Shown: positions 1 through 17,885 of the stretch, one piece after another | How positions within the stretch are numbered: the stretch's first letter is position 1 | How the letters are laid out: the number at the start of each line of letters is the position of its first letter | NCBI GenBank assembly: GCA_028565635.1 | Contig: JAOXYB010102827.1 | Span: 1-21,318, forward strand | Direction: 5' to 3' | Origin: Phoronis ovalis | Taxonomy: Eukaryota; Phoronida; Phoronidae | DNA length: 21,318 bases | Notes under the pieces: generated by a model | Database searches by the model: none | The model's input: the letters and a program-made list of their open reading frames with translations, nothing else | What the model was told of the DNA's origin: nothing | Position numbers and translations under genes: made by a program

Positions 1-1089
1 TATACATACATACTGATCAGTTGATAGGCTTGTAGCCCTACTCGAACTGAGATTGTTGTGATACGATGTATTATTGTACATTTCAGCTGAGCATGTTGAA
101 GCCACCAGATTTGCTATATTTCTGGGTAATGGCATTATTGTTTATTGTTTTATTTTGCTATACAGGGTACCACGAAGTAAACGGAATCCCTACGTACATT
201 TTATGAAACTGCTTAAATTTTCAATTCCCTATTTTTCATAGAAGCTGAAATTACTAGGTTGATGTTTTGAATCAATCAAATATTTGACCGGTTAGACCAA
301 TTTATGTTTAAACATCGTTGAAAGGGAAAACCAAAAATGCAAAATGGAAAAGAAAGCTTCGCCATTTTCGATATTTTCTTAGTATTTAGCGAAGAAATCT
401 TTACTATAACGCAATTGTGTTTCATATTTGAAAATAATACTTGTTAATAGTTGTTACAACACTAAATATGCCTTCTTTTGTAAATGTGTAAAACTTAATT
501 TACTTCCTATAGAAGAAATTTGGACCAAGATATCATGCTGTACCGAAAATATAAAATGCAATTCTGGTTTTTCAGTATATGTTAAGAATATAAGTGGAAT
601 ACAAGTAAAACATTTAAAAAGAAAGTATTTTGCTTACTTTGTGACACCCTGCAGATCTGGAAATCCATTCATTAATTATTGTAGATACAGTTTGTCGTGT
701 CTTTGCAAGGAACAACACCTATCAATGCTAGTAATCGAATAATGATAACTGTGAATCCTTTAAGTTTAGAAAAAAAACATGATACCATAACGTGTGAACG
801 TAAATACTACATGATTTGAAATGTTTAAGATGGTAAACAGTTAATGTATACAAGAAAGTTAAACTGTATATAATGTAAAATAATTTAAGTTAAGTTGAAC
901 ATGACAGTATAACGCATGATCGTGACTACTACACGCTTTGAAATTGTTGATGCATCAACTGTCTTTATCAAATTTAACAATTATTTTATGTGAGAAAATT
1001 AAGCTGTATTGCAGAACAAATATCTCAACGAAATTAGCACAAAGCCATAGTCTGCAGCATGCATTTTTACCTTTTTATCGCACATGTAG
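1..1089. other. Upstream intronic or intergenic sequence, no supported exon
   Basis: This is AT-rich sequence before the first recognised exon. Reading frames here are short and match no domain I know. An open frame at 428-742 contains several cysteines but lacks the EGF or CCP spacing and has no convincing splice pair. A 39-nt open segment at 87-125 has a good acceptor (tacatttcag) and a possible donor (gtaatg), both in phase 1, but it is too short to assign. No promoter element is recognisable. The signal peptide that the downstream membrane protein should have was not found here, so the gene probably starts before the window. Confidence 0.5.
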
Positions 1090-1209
1090 GACTTGCAGTA
1101 TGTAGGGGGCAGCAGCCTTGCAAACATGGCGGTACGTGTGTCGATACAGGCGATTTACAGAATGTATGCCTATGCAGGGAAAATTACTACGGTGCTCAAT
1201 GTCATCTTG
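1090..1209 (+). CDS. Exon 1 of model: EGF-like domain
   Basis: The frame starting with Cys at 1101 gives six cysteines with spacing C-x5-C-x5-C-x9-C-x1-C-x8-C. It includes CKHGGTC and, near the end, YYGAQC, the classic EGF signature. The donor is ctt g|gtaggt, leaving phase 1. Two in-frame acceptors compete: tgtag|ga (start 1090) and cttgcag|ta (start 1099), which differ by three residues before the first Cys. I chose the first because it is the first AG after a T-rich tract (tttttacctttttatcg). The domain lacks an obvious calcium-binding consensus. It is the most N-terminal domain visible and joins in frame to the first CCP exon. It could belong to a longer EGF series upstream. Confidence 0.85.
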
Positions 1210-4200
1210 GTAGGTATATACAATCAACTCTCTGACGTGTGCTTAAAAAATCACTGGAACGCTGAGATAATTATGAGTGCCGAATATAATATCTATGAAT
1301 TTCAGGATATTACTTAAAAATCTGATTGTAACACAAGTTTGAATAGTGGCTTTACAATTGAGAAATTGCTGGCATTGAAATGCTGGGGATAGAGCTAGAC
1401 CTATGAACAGTTCTGAATACGCTACTATGTTTCATAAGACCTTGTGGTCACTTGACGAATTGGTGCTTCACTTGGGGTTATATCTAATTATGCATTGCCC
1501 ACTTATTTTTAGAAACAGCATACTTGAAATCTTAGACTTGAAACTTGCCCCTAGCTCGATGTCACCTTATGGTAAGGATGTTGTCAACTGAACCAATATA
1601 CAAGGCTGTAGTCGGTAGTTACTAAAATAATGAGCCATGTACGCTAAACGCACTATTATTATAAATTATGGGAGTTCTTTCTACGTTATACGTATGGAAA
1701 ACGTATTTTAGGTAGCTGCACCGTATCCACACCGCAGAATGCAGTAAGTGATGTTACGACTGGAACAAGAGCAGCGGTTGATGTAATGGTGACGCACGAA
1801 TGCATACCGAATTACATATTCCCCGATAGGTCAACAAACAAGACGACGACATGCATTGACATGAATACTTGGGATAAAGAGGTGCCTGACTGTAAAGGTA
1901 TCAGGGAAATATTGATATTTCAGCAAAAAACACCATAACGTTAGTTTAGTTTGACTTTTGAAACAAAAACAAACATGATCAATGCGAATGGAATAAGGGA
2001 TCATCTCAAACGTTATCACAAAGGCCACAGACGTCAAACGTGTAGTGGCTCGTATAGGGGGCAGGAGGGGGTAAAATATGTTCTTGTTTAGTCCGAAATG
2101 AAAAAAATATTCCTAGTATATACGATATTTAAAATCATTCCTTTGTAAATATAGATTAAAGTTTTAGGTTCTAGTTATTCTATACCTCTCCATGAACATT
2201 CATACAAGCTTGCAAAATGTACAGGACAGTGAAATATCTACATCAAACGGCTAAACCATGCCACGGGTACCAGCTAGTTTTAACTTTACAGCATATACGA
2301 CAGTCGTAAAGCGGGACGACCTTTTTATGTCACAGCAGTGCAGACAATACATCATTGCTAAGCAGTTAACGCTTTTTGGTACTATGGCGCCGGAAAGCAG
2401 AGCTATTTACAAACGTCAGCCTTTAAACAGGTACCAGACGTTTGTAAATAGCTGTGTATCGAAGCATACCAGTTTATCGGTGGAGGTAAATATTTTATAT
2501 TATAAAACAAATTAATCGATGATTTCGCCCTTGAAATTGGTTGTTAGTTTTTACCCGGGCGTGACGTCCAGTCTGTGTTTAACGTGCAGAAATCAGAATA
2601 ACTCACACTGGAAGTATATATGTTGCTATCGGTGACTCTAATTGATTCAGAAAATGATATTAGGAGAGCATCTGCTATGGAAATGTCTATTTCTGATAAC
2701 ACTATTCAAGTTCAGTCGGTGTTGTAATAAAATGTTAAACTAGATAAGGTACAATCCATTCCTTACTATGGCCGGGACTAAGGCAGATAAGGCTATTGTT
2801 CTCAGTGTATGTAAAAATACGTTCGCTTGGATAGTGCACAAATCTCACTAAACGCCCTACATTTGACCAGGGGGTGGGAGGTAATTCCTGTATAAAACAC
2901 TATTCGTCTGTGGCCATTGTGATAACTTTCAAGATGATCCCTAAGGCTGTCTAGTATTTAACTAAGTAAGGCTGGGATAGACAGACACTTACGACACACA
3001 CGCACGCGCAGTTATTAATACCGTTTGAACTTGCAGTCACAATATAAACTATTTACCTTTATTTTATTTTTAAATATTCTTCTACCAGGAGCTCCAGTTA
3101 ATCACTCTATCTTTGCTAGCTGTGTAGTAAACATTTCACAAACATACTACAAGCAAGTTTGCTTATAGTGCCACAAGAATGAACTGCTTAATACTATATA
3201 TTCATTTGTGATGTGCCGGTGACGAATTAGATGTTACAATTGAATATTCCCATTCAACAATATACCGGCCTATTTATATTAGGGGCAAGATGCTGTATCT
3301 CTTGTAATTGCCTATTGTCAACCATCATACGCTGGAACGGTACTACTGCCGTTTTATCCATATTATACATTACTAGACGGTCGTTGTCAAAATAAATGCG
3401 CCTCATATGACAACGGCAGTATTATTCTTGTGCACACGTGATATGGTTTCAAGTATTTTCCCTGTACATTTGTCTTTACATACGCTGTGCTTCATATGTA
3501 TAAAGCATGAATCCTTTTAAAATCAAAATTAGCATTTTTCTCTCACATAAATTAATCTAAACTACTTAGTTTCCAGCTGGATACAATAATCTTTCATCTG
3601 GTCAATCATTAAACGTTTCAGCTTCTTGCTTAGTGACATCACCTGATAATACAGTGGGTGATTTGCCAGACGGAACTCGAGTGACAGCTGGCACAAGTGT
3701 GCAATTTGACTGCTTGCCTGCCCACCAATTCCCCAATCGTGAAACAAGACTTTTCTTTGCATGTTTGGATTTGAACAATTGGGACAAACAGGAACAATGT
3801 ATAGGTAAAGTTTACATTATTGAATATGTTTACGTTAAATCGGAAACATTTTCTTTCTTACTATATATAGATACAAAAACATAGTTTATAAACAAACACG
3901 GACTGGGACCCTGGGATATATTTTTTTTTTAAATAATATTTTTAAATTTCGTGTTATTGTTTTTTTCAAATACCATCATTTCCTTAATAATTGAAAAAGA
4001 GCCCCCTGTTCTTAGAGATCGTATTTTTTAAATACGATTGTTTTTATTATAACTATAAACTTTTTACATTAAAGAGTTTTACAAAGGCAGGTGTTGACTT
4101 TCTTCTTTAGAGGTATTTGAGTCTTCAGAGTCTTGTTCAATACAATGCAGACGTAATACATCCGTTAGAGCTGCGTACCCTCTCAACTATAACGTCTGGG

Positions 4201-7200
4201 CGTAACCATAGTCAACTTCTGTTTGTTGTCTCGAATAGCAGAAGAACGATATTCCCTTTATTTCTATATACAGTGTCACGAAAGCCTTGACACCAATCAA
4301 ATTGCACCTTATAGTGATAGATGTAGCAGTGGACTAAGTGAGTAGGGGGTCAATCACGCACACACACATGCTGTGCCGCCAGAGTATATCTGTACTCCTC
4401 TAAGCAAAAAACAAGATCCCCGACGATACCTATTCAGAAGGAGTCCTAATGAGAGAATAGGCGTGGTAGGCGACGATGGATCACGCAGAGAGAAAGGCTT
4501 ATATCGGTTGGCAAACTATTAACGGCGTAATTATTTCGCTCTTGTTAAATTGAAGGAATATACCAAAAATTGACCATGGTTAAGCCCAGACGTTAGCTGA
4601 TAAGGTATGGTTAACTACCGGATGGATTTATTCAGACTGAATACAATGGTGGTTGCTCTTTACAATTATCATAGCTTTTACGAACAGACTCCATCCTTCA
4701 GGGGGCAGGTGCTACTATTTCATTCATGATAGGATGCAACAAACTGCTAAAGTTTGTTCCTCTGATGATATACGTATAGTATCACGGTAACTCGTCATCA
4801 GTCCAAGATATATAATATGTCCGTTTTGATATTAAAATAGTTCTTAAGTCTTCTGAATGCTGGGTTGCCATCGTCCGAAGAATTTTTTTGTTCAGAAGTG
4901 TCTCTTCATAATATGCATCATTTTTAACCCAGTTTTGATCGTAAACTTCATCATGTCTAAAATTGTCGGGTTCCATGGCTTATTTAAACAGATTACATCC
5001 TAAGGTAGGTCATACGTTTCCATTAATCATATATCACAGCAAACCGCTAAACCTATTGCCTTTAATGATCTTGTTCCCATAAATCATTTTAGCATTATCG
5101 GTCCAACACAACATGTCAGAGCAACAGGATATGGCATTTAGATAATGTTTAGCGTTGAGTCTTGACATCCAATAAATGTACTTTAGTATTTTTCCGTGTT
5201 AACATTTTAGTAATATCTTTACTATGTACGTACATTTATAGCAAACCGCGGCCGGCGGTGTTTGGTTAGGGGGCTTCATTTGGGCTTCGGGGAGACCTGG
5301 GATCTTTCCCTGTGCTCGGGATGGGATCAATCTTTAGGGGGGGGGCAATTATTAAAAAATAAGGGTAATTAAAAATAATGAAAATTAAAACAAAATAATT
5401 TCCCACTACCCCATGGTCCCAGTCCCCGTTTGTCTTTATATCTATTACTATAATATACAGAAGTTATACCACGTTATGAAACAAAGTCATCTGCAGCACA
5501 TCAAAACGCTTGCAGTTCTTCATATTGTTTAATTTTATTAATTCCACGAAATGTCATTTATATTTAAAAGTAATAGCTAAAAATTAAAGTAGCATTATAA
5601 ATGCCTGGGATTGACAAATGTATCATAGACATGTCAAAACCGCAACACATATTTTAGATAAAGGTCAAGATAAATACATAAATGCAACACTTACATGTTC
5701 CGTGACAAAGCTTCTGTTTTGTCATAAGACCTTATTAAGGACTAGCGAAGGTCTTCTAACTGATAGAGTAATATTCATCTATGTACTAAATTAAGATGTA
5801 ATTCAGTTCTATGAATCGGGATGTCATATAATAGACATTCATTATGATACTTTCTATAACTCTTTAAAATTACTTAAGCTTAGGCGATTGCTTATTACTT
5901 GAGATTTCATTGAAACCATTGTCCATTAACAGCCGTGGCTTATTCAAGTTCTTGTTTCGCATTTTACGCACGTACGTATGTTTCAGCTACTTGCACAGTA
6001 ACTACTCCCAGTCACTCAATAGGAAACGTAGCGAACAGAGCAATAGTGCAGAAACAGAGAACAGTGACATTTCAATGTAAACCAGGCTACCGATACCCTG
6101 ATATGTCATCAGAGAAGTCAACAACCTGTATCGATGTTAATACATGGAACAACGAGGTGCTAGTTTGCATAGGTAAATTAACAACAACAACAACAAATGT
6201 GTTTCAAGGTGAATTAACATCAACAAACATGTCAATAAAAAGTATTTGGAAATGATTGGGTAATAGTAACAAAAGTTTAACAGGGTGACGTGAAATGCTT
6301 GTCTCTATTCTTTGACGATTTATTTACCTTACCAAAGGTTATCTTCAGGCAGCAAAGATGATCTTTCTTTATGGCTGCAGTTTCTTCAAGATTTCAATGC
6401 AAAAGTATTTGGAAAATGACTTGGATCCTTAGCTTCCGTCATCTATTTCAATTTTCACACATATGATCCAGGTTCTTTGTATTAGGTTTTGGTGCTTTGG
6501 TTCTTGGAACTCGTCATGCTTTCGAGAAAATAGTGCACTTCTAGAACTACATCCAGTTGCGCTTGCTATGAAATTATGGGGACATGTGGTTGCTAATAAT
6601 CTATTGTGTTTTACTCTGAAAATGAAGCCGTGCTTCGCATTCTTAATACTAGCACTACTCGACTTTTACATATCAAGTTCCCGTGTGTTGTTTGGTTTTG
6701 TTGATAGTAATAATTGACACAGGGTGCTAATGTTGCATATCAATTGGAAATAGACCATGATGTACTTCATGGAATTAATAGTTTTGCAGTTTAAGCGAAT
6801 TTTATTTACTCCTTTTACGTGCATATCAACTGTTACATACACGCTTGAATACAATGCTGTCAGCCAAAGTTATTTATATTCGGCAAATGTCTACATATAC
6901 ATACTTTAATTAGCATTTGAAGGACATTATGATGGTACTATTGCCACTACTTACATGTGTATGTAAGGGTGGATTCCGAAAAATAGGCCATATTCTGACG
7001 TAGTGGTCACTTTCTTATTCCAAAGCTATCGTTTTTCGAAATTAAACAAAAAAACACACACGATGATTTTGTTATACAGCAATTTTGTTATTATCGAGTG
7101 AAGAAATTACAAATGTACTAGTGTATAATAAATTAGATGGCTACAAATTAGAGAAAATCAATGTAGGCTCACGGAATATACCATTACAGTTGCTTCGTAG

Positions 7201-10200
7201 TTATGGGGTTAAAATTCAAAAAATGGTGTGCCACAAGAACTATTTGTATCTTTTTCACTTGAAAATCACAAACTAATATTATCGTTCCAATGTTCTGTGA
7301 AAATGTTCGTCATTTTATAATTGTTAATTTTGAACAAAAGAATGAAAACTAATTCTAATACTTTCTATATCTTCTTAAAATGATTCATAGAGAGAGGCGA
7401 TTGAAGTTTCTTGATACCATTGATGCTACTGAAGTCTTAGTCTATTTTCATTTTTGTGATGTTTTAGCTACTTGTACAGTATCTACTCCAAGCCAGTCTA
7501 CAGGCAGCATACCAGACACTACTAGAGTGCTAAAGCAAACAATGGTGACGTTTCAATGTTCACCAGACTACGCCTTTTCCGACATGTCGTTAGAGAAAAC
7601 AGCCACATGTATTGATGTTCACACTTGGGATATTGAGGTGCCAGATTGCATAGGTATATTAACAACGTGTTATTTGTTTGGTATCTCAGAATGTTGTACT
7701 TTAGTAACAGATGAACAACTACAACAGAAATTTATATAAATGTACAGTTTACCCTTGACGAGATCAAAAATCCAAGATTTATCGTTGTAATGTTGCAGTA
7801 GTACAGGCTCTACTCGCCAATCTGTGTCGCGCTCATTCGTAAATTTACACATAACTCTAGAAGGTGTTCTAAACTGTTAGAACGCTCTGGAATACTTGAA
7901 ATGCGTGTTTCTGTGTTGTCATTATTTTACTTGGATCATTACGTTTGGTAACTTATAAACAAACAAATTAGCAAAACAATTTCTTTTCAGTAAAACTGAT
8001 TTCCATGGAAATGGATGTTTACTTTATTGTTGTTTTTTTTAAAATTTATTATACATTCAATAGATACATTCTACGATATAGTGAAAAGATTACACATGAA
8101 CACTCATTCCGATCCCTTTTATACATTTTTAAAATAATCTATAGAGAGGAACAATTGACTTTTATTTTCATTGAAGCTACTGAAGGCGTAATCTACTCTC
8201 ATTTTTGTTTTATTTTACCTACTCTTATAAACGTACGCCATGTTTTAGCTACTTGTACAGTAACTGCTCCTAAGCAGTCAACAGGCAGCATGCCGGACGG
8301 TGCAGTGCTTAAACAAACAACTGTGACGTTTCAATGTTCGCCAGGCTACGCCTATTTCGATATGACCTTTCAGAAGTCAGCCACATGTATCGACATTTAC
8401 ACCTGGGACAATGAGGTGCCAGATTGCATAGGTATATTAAAAGCATGTAAAGTGTTTGTATTTCAGAATGGTGTACTTTAGTTTCTAAGTGAATCATGTA
8501 TTTCCGGCATCGTAAACCCGCATAGTTAGCGGGAACAGTTAGCGCGCTTAGCTTATCCTTCTTCTGAGCAGTAGTTAACTAGATATTTAGCGTCCATAGT
8601 TAGCGCTTATTGTGCTTCTGACCAATCGTTAACTTTAACAATTAAGCAAATGTAATACTTATTGAACGAATACAACATACATTTATATGAATGTATATTT
8701 TATCCTTGACATGGTCAAAAATGCATAGTTTATTATTGTAATCTTGTAGTCTAAAGTAGTGGATGTTCTCCTCGCTCCTGTTGAACATGCACATTCGTAA
8801 ATTAACACATATATCTGCAGAAACTGTGCTAAACCGATAGAACAGTCTGAAATAATTGCATTGCTTCTTTTTGGGTTGTTATCATTTTACTTGGACTTAG
8901 ATCATTACTTTTGGTAACTCGTGAAGAGAAACAAAATATCAGAACAATTTCTTTTCAATCAAAACGATATCCATGGCAAAGGATCCTAATTTTAATAGAT
9001 AAAGTCTACGGTAGTACAAATGATACACTAGCTTACAGTGCACACTTTGGCAGGAAGAGGCGTACAAATGCACACCCACTCTGATACTTCAATACTTTCA
9101 TTTTAAAATGATTTATGGACAGGGATGATTGAAGTTTCTTGAGATTTCATTGAACCTACTGAAGTCGTAGTCTATTCCCATTGTTGTGTTGTTCCATCTA
9201 CTCGTCATGTTTTAGCTACATGTACAGGAACTGCACCTAGACAGTCAACAGGCAACATAACAGACAATATGTTTGTGCTAAAACAAACAACGGTGGCTTA
9301 TCACTGTTCGCCAGGATACGCCTACCCCGACATGTCGTCAGCGAAGTCAACAACATGTATCGACGTTTACACCTGGGACAATGAGGTGCCAGATTGCACA
9401 GGTATATTAATAACAACATATTATGTGTTTGGTATTTCAAAATATTGCACTTTAGTTGTGTCCAAATGAACTACTACAACAGAAGTTTATATGACTGTAT
9501 GCTTTACCATAGACATGATCAAAAATGCGTGGTTATCACTTTAATCTTGATGTAGTGTTTGTTCTTCTCGTTACTCCGTGACATGATCATTCGTAAATTT
9601 ACACATATCTCTGCAGAAAGTGTTCTAAACTATTAGAACGCTCTAAACACTTGAATAGCTTGTTTATGGGTTGTCATTATTTTACTTGGATTTAGATCAT
9701 TACGTTTGGTAACTTGTAAAGAGAAAAAATATCAACACCATTTCTTTTCAGTAAAAACGATTTACATGGCTACGGAACATAATTTTAACTTTCTTTATTC
9801 GATTGTTTTATATAAAGGATAAAACCTGCAATATTGAAAAATATACAATCGGTTTCGGTGCAAAATTTGGCTAGAAGAGTGTTACAAATGAATGCACATT
9901 CTGATACCGTCTATATGATTAAAATGATTTATAGTGATAGATGGTTGAATGTCTTGAGATTTCATTGATGCTACTGAAGGTGCAGTCTATTCTTATGTGT
10001 TTCTCTACGGTTATAAACGTACGCCATGTTTCAGCTACATGTACAGTAACTGCTCCTAGTCAGTCTACAGGCAGCATGCCGGACGGTACTACAGTGCTAA
10101 AGCAAACAACGGTGACGTTTCAATGCTCGCCAGGCTACGCCTATTTCGACATGTCATTTGAGAAGTCAGCCACATGTATCGATGTTTATACCTGGAATAT

Positions 10201-13200
10201 TGAGGTGACAGACTGTATAGGTATATTAACAATTACATATTATATGTTTGGTATTTCAGAATGTTGTGCTGTAGTTTTCAAATAGACCGCTGCAACATAT
10301 GACATGATCATTAATGCATGGTTTATCACAGGCTAAATAAATCTATCAGTTAGTGTTTCGTACTTTCTCAATTAAAGTCTGTGCTTAACCATAGTCAACT
10401 TTTGTTTATTATCTCGAAAAGCAAAAGAACGGTAAACCCTTTATTTCTATATAAAGCGTTACGAAAGTCTTGACACCAATCAAGTTACATCTTTCAATAA
10501 TAGGCATAACAGAGGACTAAGTGGATAGGGGGTCCATCACACACATTCTATTCTGCCAGAATGTATCTATGGTCGGCTAAGTAAATGTAAGCTCTCCGGC
10601 GATACCTAGTCAGAAGGAGTCATAATGAGATACTAGACGTGGTAGGCGACGATGGATCACACAGAGCGAAGGCTTACCTCGGTTGGCAAAAGATTAATGA
10701 CGTAATTATTTCGATTTTGTTAAATTGAAGGAATATAACAAAAATTGACGCTCAGATGTTAATTGGGGAGGTATGGCGCACTAACATATGGATTTATTGA
10801 GACTTGCTATTGTGTGATTGACCTATTATCGCGTTAAATCCGCCCGTACCCATACATAACTTCTCGTTAACAAATTACGAGCAATGTATCAATGATTCGA
10901 TTTTCAATCGCTGAAAATCGTACAGAAGTTTCTCTCCAGCCTGCTACCGACCCGAACTGGGCTAGGGTCATGGGAAGCCGATTATCAAACGGCCCGGCCC
11001 GGTCCGATTTGTTTTTGGATAGAACATTGTCCATATAACAAGACTTGGGCTATTAGTAGTATTCATATCTGAACATCCAGCTTCTTAAGCGGTGAACTGA
11101 ACACGGTTTTCCATAATTATACACTTTATATTTCAGCAACTTGCACTTTAGCAGTTCCAAAACATTCACGACACATTGTAGTCGGAAAGTCAAATGGAAC
11201 AAACGTTCTACGTTCTACTCTTGTAACCTTCCAATGTACAAGAGGTTACTTATTTTCTGATAAAGCGGTGGAGAAGTTGGCAAGGTGTGACGATTTAAAT
11301 TATTGGAATATTTTAATACCAACACATTGCACAGGTAGGAATGAAATTCTACGAACTGCTATTGGAATGCTATGGTGTAGCAGGAGACGTCATTATACTG
11401 TGATATAATGTCTACATACTTACTTTTACCGCTTTTAATGCAGTTTAATTGTCCGCATTTTTATACTTTTTATTTTGCACACATAGCATAAATCCTGCTG
11501 CAAACTTCTGCCTTAGTCAAGTATGTTTTCAAATAGAAAACCAACCGTTAATTAAAATACACTGTGGTACTGTCGGTGGTTTATAACCTTATGCTCTAAT
11601 TTTCATAAGCGTTATAATTGTGTGTTATTGAAATTTAATTGTCAAGACACTTTCACCTACACGTATATTTGTTACTAGAAAAAATCTATTTTTGCAAAAA
11701 TAGTTTTAAAATATTCTTAAGATTTTGTCACTTACGCCTTGTGTCCTTGTGCTAATCTTACCGTATTTTGTTCTAACCTTTGGTTAGCTTGTCTGAGCTG
11801 GTGTTTATGCTGCTGAACTGTATCTCGAGACTTTTAACTACTTTGAATTCTTAGCATTGTCTTTGTGTTACTCGTAGGACCTGAACTATATTATGTTTGA
11901 CATTTCAGCCACTTGCACAGTAACGACGCCTCCGAATTCTTTGGGCAGTTCTGCAGATGGAACTTCTGCCTTTATAGCTACGCAGGAAAACTTCAAATGT
12001 CAACCAGGCTACGAGTTTCCTGATAGGTCGAGAGACAAAAATGTTTCTTGTATTGATTTGAATTCCTGGAATATTGAGATACCGAGCTGTCGAGGTACTA
12101 ATTCAAGTATACAACTAGATATAGAACTGTTGTGGCTATCCCAGCTGTTAAATCTAATGTTAGTATAATAATGAACTTACCTATTGTTTTGTAAAAAAGG
12201 AAAGCCTGTTGTTTGAATATTGTCGAAATGCACTGTTTTTATTGCTTGAAAGTTAGTAACGTTAGCAATTTATTCTATGAGCAATTTATTTTACATGAGC
12301 ATTGGAATACCTTTGGGGAAGATCTCGAAAATTCACAAGCCAATTCCATATGAATAGTGTTCGCATAAATGTTACCATTCGCAATCCCCTTTAAACATAT
12401 GGATGTTTGTTTGCGTAATAATTAATTTGTAAACGCATACTGAGATCCGCGGGCGAATGAAGAGGCAGGGAATAGTAATGTAACTAGCAAGCTCGTACTA
12501 TAGTACATCGTTCACTCTATAAAATACGTCTTGTCGGTTCTACTAATAGAAGAACAATATGATAGTGAAACAAACATGAAATGAAAGTCCTGCCTGAGAC
12601 TCATTTATGGTAATAATGTATTATACAAAGCGATGCTGTACTTTCACTTCCATTCCTTTGCTCTTGGTGACGCGGATATGAAATACACCATCTAATAATT
12701 TTGATTTTTTTTGTTATCGTTCCCCAGCTATAGTAATATTTTTCAAACACTTTTGCGATTTGTACCGATAACTAAACGTAAGAGACTAAACTATCAATGT
12801 TTTTATTGAATCGGTTTGCGAACTTTCAGATCTTCTCTTATATATATTGGTTGGTTGCATTAAGCCTATTATGCCGTAAAGGCCACGGGACAAGTTTTAA
12901 TTTTTAGATATAGAAGGTATACCATAATTCAATTTATCTTTTTAAATACATGACAAAGAAATGCTGGCATTCCCATTAATAGATAACGTTTACACCTCAT
13001 ATTGTAGATACAATGTATACCACTCAAACACAGGCGCAATTATCTGCCGGTATACGTGATTATCAGATTCCTCATATACAACCCTTTAATAATAGTATGT
13101 TCCCAGGCTGCAGACATAAGTTGCTACTCACAAACCGGTTTTATTGGAAACGAGGCAGCATAAAGAAACTAAAGTATATCCCTAGTATCATCCTGCAAAT

Positions 13201-16200
13201 TATATACGTTTTTAGTGGGAACAAATGGTCGAATATTTTTATCAGCGTGAATCATATAATAGAGTCTTCTCACAGCTATTCCATCAGTTGATTTACCCTC
13301 TACTTCCTGTTTATACAGGTGCAAACTGCCATTCAAATACATTACAAATAAAGGTTTATCTGACTAAAATATCAGGAAAGAAATTTTTAGAAAAAGAAAC
13401 TTTTGAGTACATGCATTATACTTTATTATATATCATTTCAACAGGAAAAAATTATAAACCTAACAATTATTTTTAATTTTGACAAGTTTGTTATAATTCC
13501 TATTGAATGTATGCTTGGTTTGCACATATAGTTTTAAGGGGGAGACTGGAACAGCCATGCATGAGAAGAGTCTATACTATCGGGATACAGATTTCATAAA
13601 TTGTGCCGCTTTTTAGGAAAGATAATGTTTCGCAATCAACATCACAATTCACCATTAGTGACAATAAGCATTCGAAATCTCTCGAGTAGAATTAAATTAC
13701 ATTGCTGTTTTCTATATGACCTTTGATTACCCTTTATACAATTGTCTAATAATGGAGATAATTATGAAGAAGTAGGTGATTATTTATGATGCGCGATATC
13801 GAATTGAAACACGCGCCCATTATATTTGACGCAATGTGAGTTGATTTGGTTCCTTACGGCTGAAACCAACTGAGGTCAAACTATGTGCAAAACTCGGCAT
13901 GTTATATCTGGAATTTTCACATTCAATAAGACTGATACTTGAAATCATGACAGGCGCTTTTTATCACTCTCGCTGAAAATTATTTTAATATATTTTCCAC
14001 TGAAGTAGTAAAATAGCATGAGATATTCAGGGTGACACAGGGGAGTAGGAGATATTGTAGTACACACAATGACATCATGGCTAAGATCTGCCGTGTGGCT
14101 AATTGTTGCTCATATTCCGAATGACGGTACGTAGAGTTAAATCTTAACATTGTAAATGTTTTTTATTGAAGAAATGACCTGTCCGAAACCGGAACTTACA
14201 AACACAATCACAACGGGTAACTATGAGCATAATGATACAATTCCCATCGTCGGCGAGGTGATATTTCATTGTGAGACAGATTACGGTTTTGAAGATGGAT
14301 CTCCTTCGAAAACAAATCTCTGTATCTCAAGTAACGATGGTGCTAAATGGAACACTCCCTTTGCAGAATGCATAGGTGAGTTTGTATTGATATTTTAGCA
14401 ATTACCGGTAACATATTTAAACACGTTTCTGTACTATTATCATATATATGGACACATTTAAATAGTAATAGATATAATAACATTTTAATATCCAAGCAGC
14501 TTTAAACTCCTGGCCCGGCTTCAAGCCCAGGTGTGCCTTACGACACTGATGGTGTGTAGATTTATAGATGGTTTATATGCAATAAACAGTTCTTTCCAAA
14601 ACCTTTGCTTCAAAGATGTAGATTCGGTCAAATTCGGACTATACTAACAATGCTGCTGGCAATCAACCAAGTTTTAAAATTATACAACATTTTTGTAGTA
14701 ATTCATAGCAAGCATTTGCCATTATTAAGCCAGGCTCGTGTGACCGTGCATTTGTTAAGAGGTTTAACCGGTTCGAAGATGGAATGTAGAGTTATGATTT
14801 CACTGTTAGAAAGTTTATAATAAATTAATATGTTTCAGACTTCGGATTATATGTCACAGAACATCTAGTAGTATTTTAAAATAAAATAAAAATGAGATTT
14901 AGGTGACTACCCTTTCTACTCTCAGTACATTGAACCTGCCAACAATATACATATATACATATACACGTGCGTGTGCGTGTATGTCCAGGATTGTGATCTA
15001 TATAACTACCGTCGTGTGATACCTTACTTAGATTAAACGTATTAGTTCAGCCACTTGCGAAATAGCAACGCCTGCGCTTGCAGTGAGCAGTTCTCCCAAT
15101 GGAACCCGTATTCTTGTATCTACTCAAGAAACCTTCAAGTGCCAACCAGGCTACGCATTTCCTAACATGACGATAGAGGAGCATATTTTCTGCATTGGTT
15201 TGAATTCCTGGGATGCTGATGTACCGAGCTGTGAACGTACTAATTTAAGAATGCTAGCAGATAGTGTACTGGTGTAGTAATCCTAGCTGTTTAAACCCAT
15301 TGACTGGACAACATGTATATGTTAGATGGCAGATATAGTACTGGTGCAGTAATCCTAACTGTTTAAACCCCTGTTTGTGAACTTACTAAGGGCGTGGTCC
15401 AGTTGTACATACATGTAGTTTTAAGATCTTGTTAGATCTTTCTAGATCTTGAGATCAGATTCAAACCAGATCCTCGTGATTTTCAAAGTTCAGAGTATTT
15501 TTTTGGTAAAAGTTATGTATGTATATGCCTGTTTGTTCATTTCAACTGCTATAACTAGAATTGTGATATATATATATATATAACATTTAATGTCGTGTCA
15601 GACTTTAGGTTTCCAAGATCCGCTCTTCATGTGTCATTGGCAGAACATATCGCTTTGAATACGTCAAATTTGACATTTCAGCCACTTGCGGAGTAGCAGC
15701 GCCCGCGCATTCACTGGGTAATTCTGCTGATGGAACGCGTGTTTTCATATCTACACAAGAAACATTCAAATGCTTACCAGGCTACGAATTTCCTAACAGG
15801 ACGAGAGAGAAACGCGTTTTCTGCATTGGTTTGAACTCATGGGATGCTGATGTACCGAGCTGTGAAGGTGTTAATTTAGGAACGCTAACAGATATAGCAC
15901 TGGTGTAGTAACCCTAGCTGTTTAAACCAATTGATTGGACAAAATTTTAATATTAATTTACCTTAATCATTATACAACAATTAAACCCGTGGACAAGTTG
16001 AACCCCAGTTTATATAGTTACGCCTACTTGTCTGCTGTTTCGATATATATGTATATATGTAGCATGATACGGTGTGAATGCTATATGTTGTTCATTCAAA
16101 CTTATTTCATTGAAGAAATGGCCTGCACGAGGCCAGAACTAATGCACGTAATCGTTACGGATATCTACGAGTCTGAGCAGACAGTTCCCATCTCCGGTGA

Positions 16201-17885
16201 CGTGACCTTGCAATGTGATACAGAATACCATTTTCAAGATGAATCTCCTTCGAAAACTTCTGTCTGTGTCTCAAGTAGCTATGGTGTTACATGGAACCCC
16301 GCCTTTCCAGAATGCGTAGGTGAGTTTGAGCTTAATACCTATGCAGTTACTATTAACATATATATTGACAATATATTGAACATTCGTCTACACTGATGTT
16401 ACATTTTTTTAAATAGCAACAAATGTTGATGAAAGTAATTTAGAGCCAATAACACGGTTCGTAATTGTTTACTGCGTTCTCATAGAACACTAAAGTTGGC
16501 TATGTGTTGTTTTATCGGATTAGAATACCTTTGTCCTGTAATCACTCAAAATCCAATGTTCAGTTACTGCGTAATATCACATCGGGAATAATTTTTAATT
16601 TTTGCCGTTTGATGTGATTCCATTTCTTACTACTATAATTGACATCAGGGCAAAATTTGCAAATATCTACTTTAACTCTGTTTTGATGTTTTTCATTATA
16701 GCTTATACAGCTGTACGGACTACACCATATGTACCTGCTACTAGAGTGAGTATAAAATCACTCCTGAAAAACTATGAAACCCGGGTCACGCTCTAAATAG
16801 ACCAATATAGAAGACTTCGCCTGAAAGTTTCCCATCATTATAGTCTAGGAAAGTGATAGACCTTTCACATTTTTAGTCCATGTAGTCCAAAAAGCTGAGA
16901 TTATTTTTAGCTCACACCTCGTTCGAGAAGCAACACGCTATTTTTACTAGCCTACGAATACAGGAAAGGATGCATTTGTTTTAATTTTTTGTCCTGGTTA
17001 GAGGTAGATTTTGCCTTTTTAGTATGAGAATGGGTTGCGTTTGGTCTAATATGGAAGTGACCCAGGGGTTTTCTTTGCTCACATAACGGCAGTATTTCGA
17101 GAAAGTATATTACGTATTGCAGTAATATAACGTATTACACGATTGACATATTGCGTTATCTGGCTGAGCAAGTATTGTAGCTCATGACATTGTTTCAGTT
17201 CTATTATGATAACATATAGACAAACCTGTTACATTGGGAAAGGGAACGGGAAGTTTCAAGCCAAGGACGTTTTCATCAATTTGAAAATCACTACTTTATT
17301 TACTCACTATGTATTTGCTAATATTATGAACGCAATTGATTTCTCTACCATACATTTTGAAAGTCAAAAAACACAACCGACATTTGAATAGTTCTGCTTT
17401 ATCTTGAAAGGAACTTCCGGCTGAGTTTTTAAATCGAACGACGATTTCTTTTTTTTGCAGATATCTACGTTAGCACAGAGGAATGAGGCGGATGATCCTG
17501 AGAATAGCATTTCTCAATATACTGGCGTAATTGTAGGTGAGTCTTTGATTTATTTCGCAATGTTATGCTGCCCAAATTATATATATTCTTACTATTGAAA
17601 TTGGAACTTAATAATAATTCATGGTTCATCTTAACTTTAGCGGCTGGCTTTGTAGCAGTGGCTGTCGCGTGTGTATGTCTGGCTTTGAAGCTGAAGGGAA
17701 GTGCGGGAAGAAGAGGTAATTCAGAATTGGAAAATAGCAGCGATATACCTGAGCATTCTGAGATTGACTCCATAAAATCCACAGTCGATAATAAGTCCAT
17801 AAAAACGATAGACGATAATCACTCCGAAACAACCATAGACGACAATTACTCTGTGACTGGTACCTCATCTGGAAATAGCTCATAG
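1090..17885 (+). CDS. Multi-exon gene for an EGF plus 13x CCP/sushi transmembrane receptor-like protein (5' incomplete)
   Basis: This is the overall gene model, a join of 17 exons that are listed separately. The product is one EGF-like domain, then thirteen CCP/sushi-like modules, a juxtamembrane stalk of about 35 residues, one transmembrane helix and a 65-residue cytoplasmic tail. Each module exon is flanked by AG and GT and is in phase 1 on both sides. The stalk exons switch to phase 0 and back to 1, and the summed frame closes exactly (2945 nt plus one upstream base gives 981 codons and a stop). CCP modules mediate protein-protein binding in complement regulators, selectins, clotting factors and many invertebrate recognition proteins; a binding or immune-recognition role here is inference from architecture. 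Glycosylation sequons are frequent in the modules. I do not recognise a named orthologue. Exon skipping or a split into two transcripts cannot be excluded without RNA data. Confidence 0.8.
1210..1711 (+). other. Intron between the EGF exon and first CCP exon
   Basis: This intron of about 500 bp starts gtaggt and ends tattttag. The open frame at 1403-1591 has no recognised domain. I see no repeat or regulatory motif in it. Confidence 0.6.
1712..1897 (+). CDS. Exon 2: CCP/sushi module 1
   Basis: The acceptor is acgtatttta g|gt agc tgc and the donor is tgt aaa g|gtatca, both phase 1. The 62-residue module has cysteines at positions 3, 31, 48 and 61, Tyr 35 and Trp 54, with the tail CIDMNTWDKEVPDC. 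This is the four-cysteine sushi pattern (expected C1-C3 and C2-C4 bridges). An N-glycosylation sequon, NKT, lies at 43-45. It begins G-S-C where most sister modules begin A-T-C. The minus-strand frame covering this exon is a shadow. Confidence 0.88.
1898..3621 (+). other. Intron after CCP module 1
   Basis: This 1.7-kb intron starts gtatca and ends cgtttcag. It contains an open stretch at 2258-2515 with an acceptor at 2291 and a strong donor (gag|gtaaat) at 2485. Its phases (1 in, 0 out) do not fit between the flanking phase-1 exons, so I did not place it in the gene model. A CA/CG-rich run lies near 2994-3010, and a short inverted match (actactgccgtt against aacggcagta) at about 3343-3422. 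No other coding signal is visible. Confidence 0.55.
3622..3804 (+). CDS. Exon 3: CCP/sushi module 2
   Basis: The acceptor is aaacgtttcag|ct tct tgc and the donor is tgt ata g|gtaaag, phase 1-1. The 61-residue module has cysteines at 3, 31, 48 and 60 and Trp 54, and contains PDGTR, which recurs in several sisters. Two changes mark it as divergent: the conserved aromatic after C2 is His (35), and the W-to-C4 loop is one residue shorter and loses the usual VPDC ending (QEQC). Overlapping minus-strand frames at 3562-3787 are shadows. Confidence 0.87.
3889..5433. mobile_element. Segment bounded by ~100-bp imperfect inverted repeats (possible non-autonomous element)
   Basis: The left arm, about 3889-4008, begins acaaacacggactgggaccc followed by a T/A-rich run, ttaataattg and a C-rich run. 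The reverse complement of the right arm, about 5337-5433, begins acaaacggggactgggacca and follows the same course: a T/A-rich run, ttaataattg, then a poly-C block (the G9 run at 5337-5345 on the plus strand). The interior holds no transposase frame that I recognise. Either this is a non-autonomous DNA element, or two copies of one short repeat landed in opposite orientation. A short atagata-like match lies outside both arms, but I cannot call it a target-site duplication. Confidence 0.45.
4155..4639 (+). repeat. Interspersed repeat, copy 1
   Basis: This stretch aligns along almost its whole length with 10333-10805 in the same orientation. Shared blocks include ccatagtcaactt, ccctttatttctatata, cttgacaccaatcaa, ggcgacgatggatcac, cggttggcaaa, ttgttaaattgaaggaata and atggatttatt. 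The copies differ by many substitutions and small indels, so they are old. I see no coding capacity and no clear tRNA-type promoter. The family is unknown to me. Confidence 0.75.
5987..6172 (+). CDS. Exon 4: CCP/sushi module 3
   Basis: The acceptor is cgtatgtttcag|ct act tgc and the donor is tgc ata g|gtaaat, phase 1-1. The 62-residue module has cysteines 3, 31, 48 and 61 and Trp 54, with TVTFQCKPGYRYPD and CIDVNTWNNEV. It is the first of five closely related modules with homologous introns. The usual VPDC is LVC at the end. An AAC-repeat (aacaacaacaac) begins just after the donor. The open frame continues upstream of the acceptor into intron, so the ATG at 5935 is probably not a start. Confidence 0.92.
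6173..7467 (+). other. Intron after CCP module 3
   Basis: This 1.3-kb intron starts gtaaat and ends gatgttttag. The open frames at 6463-6717 and 7085-7276 match no domain I know and lack a phase-1 splice pair. The last 100 bp or so share blocks with the introns before later modules (tactttctata, ttaaaatgatt, ttgatgctactgaag), marking the edge of the duplicated unit. Confidence 0.6.
7468..7653 (+). CDS. Exon 5: CCP/sushi module 4
   Basis: The acceptor is gatgttttag|ct act tgt and the donor is tgc ata g|gtatat, phase 1-1. The 62-residue module has cysteines at 3, 31, 48 and 61 and Trp 54, with TPSQSTGS, MVTFQCSPDYAF and WDIEVPDC. The Gly of the usual PGY after C2 is replaced by Asp (PDY). It is highly similar to the next three modules, and the intron on each side is homologous to theirs. 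Confidence 0.93.
7654..8248 (+). other. Intron after CCP module 4 (duplicated block)
   Basis: This intron of about 595 bp starts gtatattaaca. It aligns with the introns after modules 5 and 6 in shared order: aatgttgtacttta, acaacagaaatttatat, cttgacgagatcaaaaat, attcgtaaatttacacata, gttctaaactgttagaac, ttattttacttgga and ggtaactt. The frame continuing upstream from the next exon (8005-8248) is an open intron stretch, since the intron ends with a clear acceptor. Confidence 0.75.
8249..8431 (+). CDS. Exon 6: CCP/sushi module 5
   Basis: The acceptor is catgttttag|ct act tgt and the donor is tgc ata g|gtatat, phase 1-1. The 61-residue module has cysteines 3, 30, 47 and 60 and Trp 53. It has lost one codon relative to its closest sister at 10035 (PDG-AVLK against PDGTTVLK), a clean 3-nt deletion. 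It shares the upstream intron string aaacgtacgccatgtt only with the exon at 10035, suggesting those two have a recent common ancestor. The minus-strand frame over it is a shadow. Confidence 0.93.
8432..9215 (+). other. Intron after CCP module 5 (duplicated block with small insertion)
   Basis: This 784-bp intron starts gtatattaaa and ends catgttttag. It is homologous to the introns after modules 4 and 6, apart from an extra segment at about 8495-8667 that is absent from both. The rest shares ccttgacatggtcaaaaatg, attcgtaaattaacacata, atctgcagaaa and ttttacttgga with them. Confidence 0.75.
8495..8667. mobile_element. ~175-bp insertion in the intron, possible small mobile element
   Basis: The sister introns read straight through this position. 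Here a block is inserted between two gaat tetramers (8491-8494 and 8668-8671), which could be a short target-site duplication. The insert contains two diverged copies of a unit of about 45-60 bp: agttagcgc ... cttctgagcagtagttaact near 8535-8580, and agttagcgc ... cttctgaccaatcgttaact near 8595-8634. No terminal inverted repeat is clear, so an unrelated insertion is also possible. Confidence 0.5.
9216..9401 (+). CDS. Exon 7: CCP/sushi module 6
   Basis: The acceptor is catgttttag|ct aca tgt and the donor is tgc aca g|gtatat, phase 1-1. The 62-residue module has cysteines at 3, 31, 48 and 61 and Trp 54. The second strand reads VAYHCSPGYAYPD, where sisters have VTFQC. It contains an N-glycosylation sequon, NIT, and lacks the PDGT motif (TDNM instead). 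The ATG at 9269 is internal, not a start. The minus-strand frame is a shadow. Confidence 0.93.
9402..10034 (+). other. Intron after CCP module 6 (duplicated block)
   Basis: This 633-bp intron starts gtatattaataac and ends catgtttcag. It is homologous along its length to the introns after modules 4 and 5 (attcgtaaatttacacatatctctgcag, gttctaaactattagaac, ttattttacttgga). It contains no exon of its own. Confidence 0.75.
10035..10220 (+). CDS. Exon 8: CCP/sushi module 7
   Basis: The acceptor is catgtttcag|ct aca tgt and the donor is tgt ata g|gtatat, phase 1-1. The 62-residue module has cysteines 3, 31, 48 and 61 and Trp 54, with SMPDGTTVLKQTTV and TFQCSPGYAYFD. It is nearly identical over long runs to the exon at 8249. 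The Pro before the last Cys is Thr (VTDC). It is the last member of the duplicated exon-intron block series, because its downstream intron loses the shared sequence where a repeat begins. Confidence 0.93.
10221..11136 (+). other. Intron after CCP module 7, carrying repeat copy 2
   Basis: This 916-bp intron starts gtatattaac and ends atatttcag. The first 110 bp align with the sister introns (gtttggtatttcagaatgttg, gacatgatcattaatgcatggttatcac), and then homology stops at the interspersed repeat (about 10333). A short GC-rich patch (cggcccggcccggtccg) lies near 10999-11015. No exon is visible. Confidence 0.7.
10333..10805 (+). repeat. Interspersed repeat, copy 2
   Basis: This is a same-orientation copy of 4155-4639, diverged by substitutions and small indels. 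It interrupts the intron homology shared by the duplicated modules, so it probably entered after, or at the end of, the tandem duplication series. It has no coding frame that I recognise. Confidence 0.75.
11137..11334 (+). CDS. Exon 9: CCP/sushi module 8 (divergent, longer)
   Basis: The acceptor is tatatttcag|ca act tgc and the donor is tgc aca g|gtagga, phase 1-1. The 66-residue module has cysteines 3, 34, 51 and 65 and Trp 57. The loop between C1 and C2 is three residues longer than in its sisters, and the W-to-C4 loop is one residue longer (NYWNILIPTHC). VTFQC and GYLFSD keep the core pattern. A sequon, NGT, is present. It has no internal ATG, so it is found only by domain pattern and splice sites. 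The usual TCID at C3 is RCDD. Confidence 0.87.
11335..11908 (+). other. Intron after CCP module 8
   Basis: This 574-bp AT-rich intron starts gtagga and ends gacatttcag. I see no repeat, exon or regulatory signal in it. Confidence 0.6.
11909..12094 (+). CDS. Exon 10: CCP/sushi module 9
   Basis: The acceptor is gacatttcag|cc act tgc and the donor is tgt cga g|gtacta, phase 1-1. The 62-residue module has cysteines 3, 31, 48 and 61 and Trp 54. NSLGSSADGT, FKCQPGYEFPD and LNSWN place it with the modules at 15051 and 15682 as a sub-branch of the ATC class. It has an NVS sequon just before C3. The ATG at 11893 lies upstream of a good acceptor and is unlikely to be used. The intron starts of these three exons also resemble each other. 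Confidence 0.92.
12095..14171 (+). other. Large intron after CCP module 9
   Basis: This intron of about 2.1 kb starts gtacta and ends tttattgaag. Two overlapping open frames at 13013-13291 and 13225-13476 have no recognised domain, and I find no phase-1 splice pair that would add them to the gene. They may be relics of an inserted element. The rest is AT-rich with no repeat I could define. No CCP-like four-cysteine frame was found here. Confidence 0.55.
14172..14375 (+). CDS. Exon 11: CCP/sushi module 10 (second subclass)
   Basis: The acceptor is ttttattgaag|aa atg acc tgt and the donor is tgc ata g|gtgagt, phase 1-1. The 68-residue module has cysteines 4, 34, 51 and 67 and Trp 60. It opens with EMTCPKPEL, and SPSKTNLC leads to C3. 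The C3-to-W loop is longer than in the ATC class and carries the Gly before Trp (SSNDGAKW) typical of textbook sushi domains. It pairs with the module at 16116. A sequon, NDT, is present. The in-frame ATG just after the acceptor is coding, not a start. Confidence 0.92.
14376..15050 (+). other. Intron after CCP module 10
   Basis: This 675-bp intron starts gtgagt and ends attagttcag. It contains a TA/CA/TG microsatellite-like run near 14946-14984. The open frame at 14605-14820 resembles no domain. Confidence 0.6.
15051..15236 (+). CDS. Exon 12: CCP/sushi module 11
   Basis: The acceptor is attagttcag|cc act tgc. The donor is probably tgt gaa c|gtacta, where the usual last exon base g is c. The 62-residue module has cysteines 3, 31, 48 and 61 and Trp 54, with STQETFKCQPGYAFPN and CIGLNSWDADVPSC. 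Sequons NGT and NMT are present. It is closest to the module at 15682. The C at the exon end weakens the donor and would turn the junction codon into Pro instead of Ala when joined to the next cc-starting exon, so this exon may be spliced less efficiently. Confidence 0.88.
15237..15681 (+). other. Intron after CCP module 11, with a local duplication
   Basis: This 445-bp intron starts gtacta and ends gacatttcag. It contains the 42-bp direct duplication at 15257-15370 and an AT dinucleotide run at about 15565-15582. The intron end (caaatttgacatttcag) resembles the one before 11909. Confidence 0.65.
15257..15370 (+). repeat. 42-bp direct duplication in the intron
   Basis: Units at 15257-15298 and 15329-15370 (offset 72 bp) match at about 38 of 42 positions. 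Both run from gcagata to ctgtttaaaccc. The intron after the next exon carries a third, related copy near 15888-15928 (agatatagcactggtg ... gctgtttaaacc), and the intron after exon 11909 has a distant one, so this intron start is an ancestral part of the module block. Confidence 0.75.
15682..15867 (+). CDS. Exon 13: CCP/sushi module 12
   Basis: The acceptor is gacatttcag|cc act tgc and the donor is tgt gaa g|gtgtta, phase 1-1. The 62-residue module has cysteines 3, 31, 48 and 61 and Trp 54, with HSLGNSADGTRVF, ETFKCLPGYEFPN and LNSWDADVPSC. A sequon, NRT, is present. It lacks an ATG near its start and was identified by its pattern. The start resembles the exon at 11909 and the end resembles the one at 15051. 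Confidence 0.92.
16116..16319 (+). CDS. Exon 14: CCP/sushi module 13 (second subclass, membrane-proximal)
   Basis: The acceptor is atttcattgaag|aa atg gcc tgc and the donor is tgc gta g|gtgagt, phase 1-1. The 68-residue module has cysteines 4, 34, 51 and 67 and Trp 60, with EMACTRPEL, SPSKTSVC and AFPEC. It is the partner of the module at 14172, with the same length and cysteine positions. It is the last CCP module before the stalk. The long frame running upstream to 15935 is intron. The preceding intron (15868-16115) is only 248 bp. Confidence 0.92.
16320..16701 (+). other. Intron between the last CCP exon and the stalk
   Basis: This 382-bp intron starts gtgagt and ends tttttcattatag. It is AT-rich and nothing else is visible in it. 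Confidence 0.6.
16702..16745 (+). CDS. Exon 15: short juxtamembrane stalk exon
   Basis: This 44-nt exon has acceptor tttcattatag|ct tat aca and donor act aga|gtgagt (full consensus). It enters in phase 1 and leaves in phase 0. It encodes a Thr/Pro-containing stretch (AYTAVRTTPYVPATR), suitable as an extended, possibly O-glycosylated stalk. The phase change matches the next exon, which is open only in phase 0. The assignment rests on splice-site quality and frame closure, not on homology. Confidence 0.7.
16746..17460 (+). other. Intron within the stalk
   Basis: This 715-bp intron starts gtgagt and ends with a strong pyrimidine tract and acceptor (ttcttttttttgcag). The open frame at 17206-17391 matches nothing recognised. 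No repeat could be defined apart from loosely repeated attacgtatt-like strings near 17109-17138. Confidence 0.6.
17461..17536 (+). CDS. Exon 16: acidic stalk and start of the transmembrane helix
   Basis: This 76-nt exon has acceptor ttttttgcag|ata tct acg and donor att gta g|gtgagt. Only phase 0 is open; the other frames hit stops. It encodes an acidic stretch (RNEADDPENS) ending in YTGVIV, the beginning of the membrane helix. It leaves in phase 1 and joins the last exon with an Ala at the junction. Confidence 0.82.
17641..17885 (+). CDS. Exon 17: transmembrane helix, cytoplasmic tail and stop
   Basis: The acceptor is cttaactttag|cg gct ggc after a 104-bp intron (17537-17640), and the frame ends at tag 17883-17885. 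Joined to the previous exon it gives a helix of about 20 residues, GVIVAAGFVAVAVACVCLAL, followed by the positive stop-transfer KLKGSAGRR, so the N-terminus should be outside. The 65-residue tail is rich in Ser, Thr, Asp and Asn. It has three short related units: STVDNKS, KTIDDNHS and TTIDDNYS. I see no canonical ITIM or ITAM; acidic Ser/Thr sites of casein-kinase-2 type are possible. Minus-strand frames over this exon are shadows, partly driven by the CA repeat. Confidence 0.88.

What the first reader, a model, noticed from the sequence alone, without database searches (positions are those of the whole stretch)
1090..17885. Unnamed EGF plus 13-CCP single-pass receptor built from one-domain, phase-1 exons
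Seen: 14 consecutive domain exons, all phase 1-1, then a stalk, a membrane helix and a Ser/Thr/Asp tail, with the frame closing exactly. Known: CCP repeats bind proteins in complement control, selectins and invertebrate recognition molecules, and symmetric exons allow shuffling and skipping. Inferred: a surface recognition receptor, possibly immune, whose binding face could vary by exon choice. I do not recognise an orthologue with this architecture and tail.
Basis: partly seen in the sequence, partly recalled or inferred. Interest (0 to 1): 0.75.

Follow-up and report, generated by a model that had tools for sequence, protein, structure and literature searches.

The report
EGF–CCP surface receptor, head cut off
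This stretch of an animal genome (probably a mollusc or a close relative) encodes most of a membrane protein with one EGF domain and thirteen complement-type domains; the gene seems to begin upstream of the window with an extra, unnamed head domain, so it is a lineage-specific relative of known EGF/CCP receptors rather than a new kind of molecule.

Summary
The exon chain is real. One EGF exon, 13 CCP exons, a stalk exon and a membrane/tail exon join in one frame; 40 shuffles gave one phase-1 CCP-like exon in total. Three corrections. (1) The gene very probably does not start at 1090. A 39-bp phase-1 exon at 87-125 is the last piece of an N-terminal domain ("head") whose other exons lie beyond the contig start. 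Sister contig C3223 has head, EGF, CCP1-2-3-8-9 and a CCP10/13-type exon in the same order and frame. C1042 has the same head and EGF followed by eight TSP1 domains instead of CCPs. So the molecule is head-EGF-CCP13-TM, and head+EGF sits on two different stalks. (2) The "TIDDN" tail is a 27-bp in-frame minisatellite, not a recognised signalling motif. (3) CCP number differs between paralogues, but selection is purifying (dN/dS 0.54), and nothing shows exon choice within one gene. Mitochondrial gene order and one Lymnaea match to the head suggest a mollusc or close relative. Nearest known kinds: selectins and bivalve "type-A P-selectins". Most likely a cell-surface adhesion/recognition receptor; an immune role is untested.

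The parts
87..125 (+). Last exon (39 bp, phase 1-1) of the N-terminal 'head' domain, reads (x)EHVEATRFAIFL(G); earlier head exons lie beyond the contig start
   Evidence: Corresponding exon and splice sites in C3223 (9 of 12 codons give the same residue); joins in frame to EGF; similar end strand (ADVLAIF) in C2495 and in Lymnaea P0001
879..1089 (.). 211-bp block just upstream of the EGF exon, 200 of 211 identical to C3223, more alike than the EGF exon (86 of 111); holds an in-frame ATG at 1059 (MHFYLFIAHVGLAVC...). Possible internal promoter/alternative first exon, or a conversion tract
   Evidence: only these 2 matches in the assembly
1090..1209 (+). EGF-like domain exon, phase 1-1 (acceptor 1090; 1099 also possible)
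   Evidence: Pfam EGF 24.9 bits given alone, 16.5 in the joined protein; C3223 EGF 72% and C1042 EGF 36-39% identical; acceptor 1090 lines up by eye with the start of C1042's EGF exon
1712..1897 (+). CCP1 exon, phase 1-1
   Evidence: 89% identical to C3223 CCP1
3622..3804 (+). CCP2 exon, phase 1-1
5987..6172 (+). CCP3 exon, phase 1-1
7468..7653 (+). CCP4 exon, phase 1-1 (no positional counterpart in C3223)
8249..8431 (+). CCP5 exon, phase 1-1 (no positional counterpart in C3223)
9216..9401 (+). CCP6 exon, phase 1-1 (no positional counterpart in C3223)
10035..10220 (+). CCP7 exon, phase 1-1 (no positional counterpart in C3223)
   Evidence: model of this domain pLDDT 72.9
11137..11334 (+). CCP8 exon, phase 1-1
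11909..12094 (+). CCP9 exon, phase 1-1
14172..14375 (+). CCP10 exon, phase 1-1 (longer type, pair with CCP13)
   Evidence: a CCP10/13-type exon in C3223 runs into the contig end
15051..15236 (+). CCP11 exon, phase 1-1
   Evidence: duplicate of CCP12, 83% DNA
15682..15867 (+). CCP12 exon, phase 1-1
16116..16319 (+). CCP13 exon, phase 1-1
17474..17536 (+). Stalk exon, phase 1-1, ending inside the membrane helix (QRNEADDPENSISQYTGVIV). A second acceptor at 17461 (TTTTTTTTGCAG) shifts the frame to ...ECVDIYVSTEE-stop, a possible soluble form
17641..17885 (+). Last exon: rest of the membrane helix, basic stop-transfer, Ser/Thr/Asp tail, stop
   Evidence: single match in the assembly
17767..17851 (+). 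27-bp minisatellite, 3.1 copies, encodes the repeated tail unit (SIKT-IDDN)

Best explanation
It is a type I single-pass cell-surface glycoprotein with the order head domain, EGF, 13 CCPs, short stalk, membrane helix, short Ser/Thr/Asp tail, of which the window lacks at least three head exons and the true start. How it most likely works (inferred): the head+EGF tip does the ligand binding and the CCP array acts as a semi-rigid stalk and secondary protein-binding surface, as the lectin+EGF tip and CCP stalk do in selectins (recalled); the tail has no signalling motif that I recognise and probably serves anchoring or turnover. Shown: exon anatomy, frame, paralogue with the same order, head+EGF also found before a TSP1 stalk, purifying selection. 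Inferred: one transcript, surface location, division of labour between tip and stalk. Not shown: ligand, tissue, immune role, alternative splicing.
For: 17 exons from 87 to 17885 join in one open frame ending at a stop. C3223 carries head A-A2-B-C, EGF, CCP1, 2, 3, 8, 9 and part of a CCP10/13-type exon on one strand; its ten exons from head A to CCP9 join without a stop. C1042 carries head A-A2-B, EGF and 8 TSP1 domains on one strand (7 of the 8 also), with head exons in the same phases 0/2/1, and its EGF reading frame has no upstream in-frame ATG, so it would have to be spliced from upstream. dN/dS over 359 codons is 0.54, bootstrap 0.39-0.75. Sushi E 4.6e-33 for the joined protein; best solved relative of the EGF-CCP13 part by sequence is complement receptor 1, E 2.5e-53. 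Hydropathy peak 2.92 followed by KLKGSAGRR.
Against: No transcript data. The membrane/tail exons have no second copy in the assembly, and C3223 ends before them, so their link to the array rests on phase, frame and distance. The stronger-looking acceptor at 17461 would give a soluble form. A conserved in-frame ATG at 1059 with a weakly hydrophobic start (peak 0.86) leaves open a head-less form. After exon C an open stretch (GYHEVN..., stop at 204-206) could be a terminal exon of a separate head-only gene. A pattern search for exon C in C1042 between head B and EGF found none. Three head-bearing contigs with 7 kb or more fetched downstream (C2495, C2832, C1383) show no EGF, CCP or TSP1 there, so the head is not always joined to EGF. 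EGF falls below its cut-off in the joined protein. The fold search of a CCP model gave no significant match (best E 1.4), although 27 of 32 rows are entries titled for factor H or its relatives, C1s, MASP or factor XIII. Head exon A's borders in C3223 are uncertain (weak donor at 292).
Confidence: 0.7

Rival explanations
1. Two neighbouring genes: a head-only secreted protein ending at 206, and a separate EGF-CCP13-TM receptor starting at its own ATG at 1059 inside the 211-bp conserved block.
For: Block 879-1089 is 95% identical between paralogues while the adjoining EGF exon is 77%, as for a promoter plus first exon; ATG and hydrophobic start conserved in both; splice-like acceptor at 166 followed by an open stretch and stop; exon C not found in C1042; some head-bearing contigs have no EGF downstream.
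Against: C1042 has head and EGF on one strand with no in-frame ATG for the EGF exon. The start would be a signal peptide of only about 13 residues with weak hydropathy (0.86). The stretch after 166 differs by one base between the two copies, so its end is not conserved. Exon C is phase 1-1 and fits the EGF phase exactly.
Confidence: 0.2
2. A mainly soluble head-EGF-CCP13 protein (opsonin-like), made by using the stronger-looking acceptor at 17461, with the membrane form minor or absent.
For: 17461 has a long T-tract and CAG; 17474 is a TAG 13 bases further on. 16319 to 17461 gives ...ECVDIYVSTEE-stop.
Against: The frame downstream stays open through a well-formed membrane helix, basic stop-transfer and tail to a stop, hard to keep if unused. 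An in-frame membrane form from 16315 to 17461 also exists.
Confidence: 0.15
3. A decaying or pseudogenised copy of a receptor whose working copy lies elsewhere.
For: Divergent CCPs, loose constraint (dN/dS 0.54) and CCP10/CCP13 at 1.23.
Against: No stop or frameshift in 17 exons and AG/GT at the splice sites shown; dN/dS upper bootstrap limit 0.75.
Confidence: 0.05

Closest known systems
Vertebrate selectins (P-selectin: C-type lectin, EGF, CCPs, TM, short tail; recalled)
   Same: One EGF directly before a CCP array, single membrane pass, short tail.
   Different: Head is not a recognised C-type lectin: no Pfam family matched it; 13 CCPs; tail unrelated.
Bivalve 'type-A P-selectin' genes (PMC9484242; start of abstract and passages seen): CCP proteins that also carry CLECT or EGF
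   Same: EGF plus CCPs; the paper reports 90 P-selectin genes in nine bivalve genomes, the majority CCP-only 'type-B'.
   Different: The passages seen do not mention a further head domain, and the word transmembrane does not occur in the main text; sequences were not compared here.
Complement receptor 1 / DAF / factor H
   Same: Best sequence matches among solved structures: CR1 E 2.5e-53, DAF, factor H; CR1 is also a TM protein with a long, internally duplicated CCP array (recalled).
   Different: No EGF and no head in those (recalled); no test of complement binding here.
Tunicate vCRL1 (sushi-domain protein) and Botryllus fester (one CCP exon, alternative splicing) (PMC9265791, PMC3549757; passages seen)
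   Same: CCP-bearing, variable invertebrate proteins; fester shows that exon skipping can diversify such a gene.
   Different: The assembly is not evidently tunicate (negative but weak; mitochondrial order mollusc-like); no splicing data here. [quoted passage not shown]

Membership tests
CCP/Sushi repeat protein | Four Cys and a Trp in the CCP spacing, about 60 residues | tested here: met
   13 of 13 share C,C,C,W,C; Sushi 113.8 bits on the joined protein; the nine single-exon queries were all below cut-off
Selectin family | N-terminal C-type lectin domain | tested here: not met
   Head of C3223 (the window's own is cut off) has no Pfam match at E<=5 and no solved relative at E<=10
Selectin family | Single EGF followed directly by CCP array, then TM | tested here: met
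   (exon order and frame; no transcript)
Bivalve type-A P-selectin (as defined in PMC9484242) | CCP domains plus an EGF or CLECT domain | tested here: met
   Domain content met; no sequence comparison with those genes was made
Complement receptor/regulator (RCA) | Binds C3b/C4b or regulates convertase | not testable with these tools
   Only CCP-level sequence likeness
Receptor diversified by exon choice (fester-like) | Multiple splice forms from one gene | not testable with these tools
   Only symmetrical exons and a copy-number difference between paralogues seen
Receptor under diversifying selection | dN/dS above 1 | tested here: not met
   0.54 overall (0.39-0.75) against C3223; of 14 duplicate pairs in the window only CCP10/CCP13 exceeds 1 (1.23)

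The most novel reading that the evidence does not exclude
A family of surface or secreted recognition molecules in this lineage in which one head+EGF cassette is fused to interchangeable stalks (CCP array with membrane anchor here, TSP1 array in C1042), with CCP number changing between copies, and with an internal start or a tandem acceptor giving head-less or soluble forms from the same gene.
Probability: 0.25. Interest if true: 0.55.

Novelty: new variant of a known kind. Interest (0 to 1): 0.35.

Why it matters
If the head+EGF cassette is confirmed by cDNA, it defines a small family with a head domain that no Pfam model matched and that sits on two different stalk types, a clear case of phase-1 exon shuffling. 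Annotation from the EGF and CCPs alone would probably file such a gene as 'P-selectin-like' and miss the part most likely to bind the ligand (inference).

Tried and rejected
Mitochondrial contig C1114: COX1 named by Pfam; the other genes I named by eye from their translations: COX3-ATP6-ND3-ND2-COX1-COX2 on one strand, ND5-ND4-ND4L-CYTB-ND6-ND1 on the other, read with code 5 (chosen by eye). This resembles the two-strand arrangement that PMC11488289 and PMC2728741 describe for molluscs, phoronids and entoprocts (passages), except that ATP6 lies between COX3 and ND3. The species was not identified.

The ORF 410-742 with its Cys-rich end looked like a last exon, but the paralogue has gaps there that break the frame. 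A C-type lectin exon upstream was sought among reading frames of C3223: five frames given to Pfam, no match. Homologues of the 972-residue joined protein: 6933 candidates, none at E<=0.001; this database seems poor in animal proteins, so that is no evidence of uniqueness. Head searches each gave the same 1 protein, a Lymnaea stagnalis partial. Its fold without an alignment was useless (pLDDT 33.3). CCP fold search: 32 rows, none at E<=0.001. Seven further contigs with CCP matches (C3766, C1339, C1064, C1273, C3912, C3812, C2650; stretches of 8.4-10 kb) had CCPs but no head and no EGF. Allele versus paralogue for C3223: dS 0.29 favours paralogue, not proven. No RNA family in the window. Nine paper searches listed no paper that I recognised as describing a head-EGF-CCP protein; the head has no name to search by.

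Full report
What is in the window. The window is contig C4712 (1-21318) of a 77.4 Mb, 4805-contig assembly. Forty dinucleotide shuffles gave one phase-1 hit in total. The joined protein scores 113.8 bits for Sushi, and its EGF-CCP13 part matches complement receptor 1, DAF and factor H among solved structures. The EGF reading frame passes the Pfam cut-off when given alone but not inside the joined protein (16.5 bits against 21.5). Stalk and last exon carry the membrane helix, split by the last intron, then KLKGSAGRR and the Ser/Thr/Asp tail. Taken singly the CCP exons are weak by Pfam: of nine queries covering eight exons four gave no match at E<=0.1 and none reached the Sushi cut-off. They are divergent members.

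Contig C3223 carries a paralogue on its minus strand. The exons it shares with the window keep order, phase and frame: EGF, CCP1, CCP2, CCP3, CCP8, CCP9, then part of a CCP10/13-type exon at the contig end. Upstream of its EGF are four more exons that together form a domain of about 210 residues; the ten exons from the first of these to CCP9 join without a stop, though the borders of the first are uncertain. The last of the four, 39 bp, has its counterpart at window 87-125, and it joins in frame to the EGF exon at acceptor 1090. The rest of the head is cut off by the contig start.

The head and EGF belong together. Contig C1042 has head exons A, A2 and B with the same phases, then an EGF exon, then eight TSP1 domains, all on one strand (Pfam TSP_1 E 7.2e-10 and 1.5e-09 for the two given). 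The first hits that led there came from direct protein searches (head E 5.5e-7; EGF E 8.4e-4); the E-values are circular because those sequences are in the models. C1042's EGF frame has no upstream in-frame ATG. A pattern search for the small exon C in C1042 found none, so one link is missing there. On this evidence one head+EGF pair sits before a CCP stalk in two contigs and before a TSP1 stalk in one. Head pieces were also found on C2832, C3160, C2495, C1383 and C1388. Of these five, C2495, C2832 and C1383 show no EGF, CCP or TSP1 in the roughly 7-10 kb fetched downstream, while C3160 and C1388 run off the contig end within about 1 kb. The head is therefore not always part of such a protein. 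It matches no Pfam family and one database protein, a partial Lymnaea stagnalis sequence (E 2.5e-24). Conversely, seven other contigs with CCP arrays showed neither head nor EGF in the stretches fetched.

Evolution of the array. CCP exons pair by position between the two copies (S1-W1 and S2-W2 at 100%, S8-W8 at 99%, S9-W9 at 72%, S3-W3 at 47% support). By protein identity S9 is slightly nearer CCP12 (0.74) than CCP9 (0.70), and the tree puts CCP10/13 beside CCP5 at 32%, an unlikely placement, so the tree is rough. CCP4-7 have no positional counterpart in C3223. Within the window, CCP4-5 and CCP6-7 with their introns are a duplicated two-exon block (7341-8484 against 9067-10277, 74%), and CCP9/11/12 and CCP10/13 are further duplicates. 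dS among CCP4-7 (0.38-0.52) exceeds dS of CCP3 between copies (0.17), so CCP4-7 more likely predate the split and were lost in C3223 than gained here; this is tentative. dN/dS between copies is 0.54 (0.39-0.75; single exons 0.23-0.86), so there is constraint but no sign of gene-wide diversifying selection. dS of 0.29 speaks for paralogues rather than alleles.

Odd features. Block 879-1089, just upstream of the EGF exon, is 200 of 211 identical between the copies, against 86 of 111 for the EGF exon from 1099, 299 of 378 aligned columns for the next intron and 446 of 537 for 126-705; no third copy was found in the assembly. A conversion tract, a regulatory element or an internal first exon (ATG 1059) would each fit. 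The last intron offers two acceptors 13 bases apart, and the stronger-looking one gives a soluble protein with the normal CCP13 donor. The tail repeat is a 27-bp minisatellite, which explains the 'TIDDN' pattern without a signalling role.

Which animal. Mitochondrial contig C1114 (15,713 bases) carries its genes in two blocks on opposite strands, as described for molluscs, phoronids and entoprocts (gene names by eye except COX1; passages of PMC11488289 and PMC2728741). The Lymnaea match fits a mollusc or close relative.

Function and standing. By anatomy it works most like a selectin: a ligand-binding tip on an EGF and a CCP stalk. It fails the defining selectin feature, a C-type lectin head (tested on C3223's head), so it is not filed as a selectin. 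Bivalve 'type-A P-selectins' (PMC9484242, passages) are CCP proteins with EGF or CLECT and are the nearest published kind that I found by domain content. A surface adhesion or recognition role is the best guess, at about 0.5; an immune role is possible but has no evidence here. Ordinary in kind, somewhat unusual in its head and in the two stalks.

Noticed in passing
879-1089: Non-coding block more conserved between paralogues (200 of 211) than the adjoining EGF exon (86 of 111); two matches in the assembly.
   Followed up: partly
L041-L042 (contig C1042, minus strand): Sister architecture: same head and EGF followed by eight TSP1 domains; contig C2799 has a further related TSP1 array (10 matches) without head or EGF found on the contig.
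   Followed up: partly
4160-4638 and 10345-10804: Interspersed repeat, two direct copies 78% alike in introns, with further pieces in C3223; may be a mobile element remnant.
   Followed up: no
19672-19950 and 20310-20596: Direct repeat, 75% alike, downstream of the gene.
   Followed up: no
17461: Acceptor 13 bases upstream of the stalk acceptor; its use with the CCP13 donor would give a soluble protein.
   Followed up: partly
L031-L032 (contig C1114): Apparently complete mitochondrial genome, 15,713 bases, with ATP6 placed between COX3 and ND3 (genes other than COX1 named by eye).
   Followed up: partly
G000 as a whole: Other CCP arrays (C2220, C3764, C1933 and others) with stronger Sushi scores than the window's exons; 150 of 343 candidates scored.
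   Followed up: no
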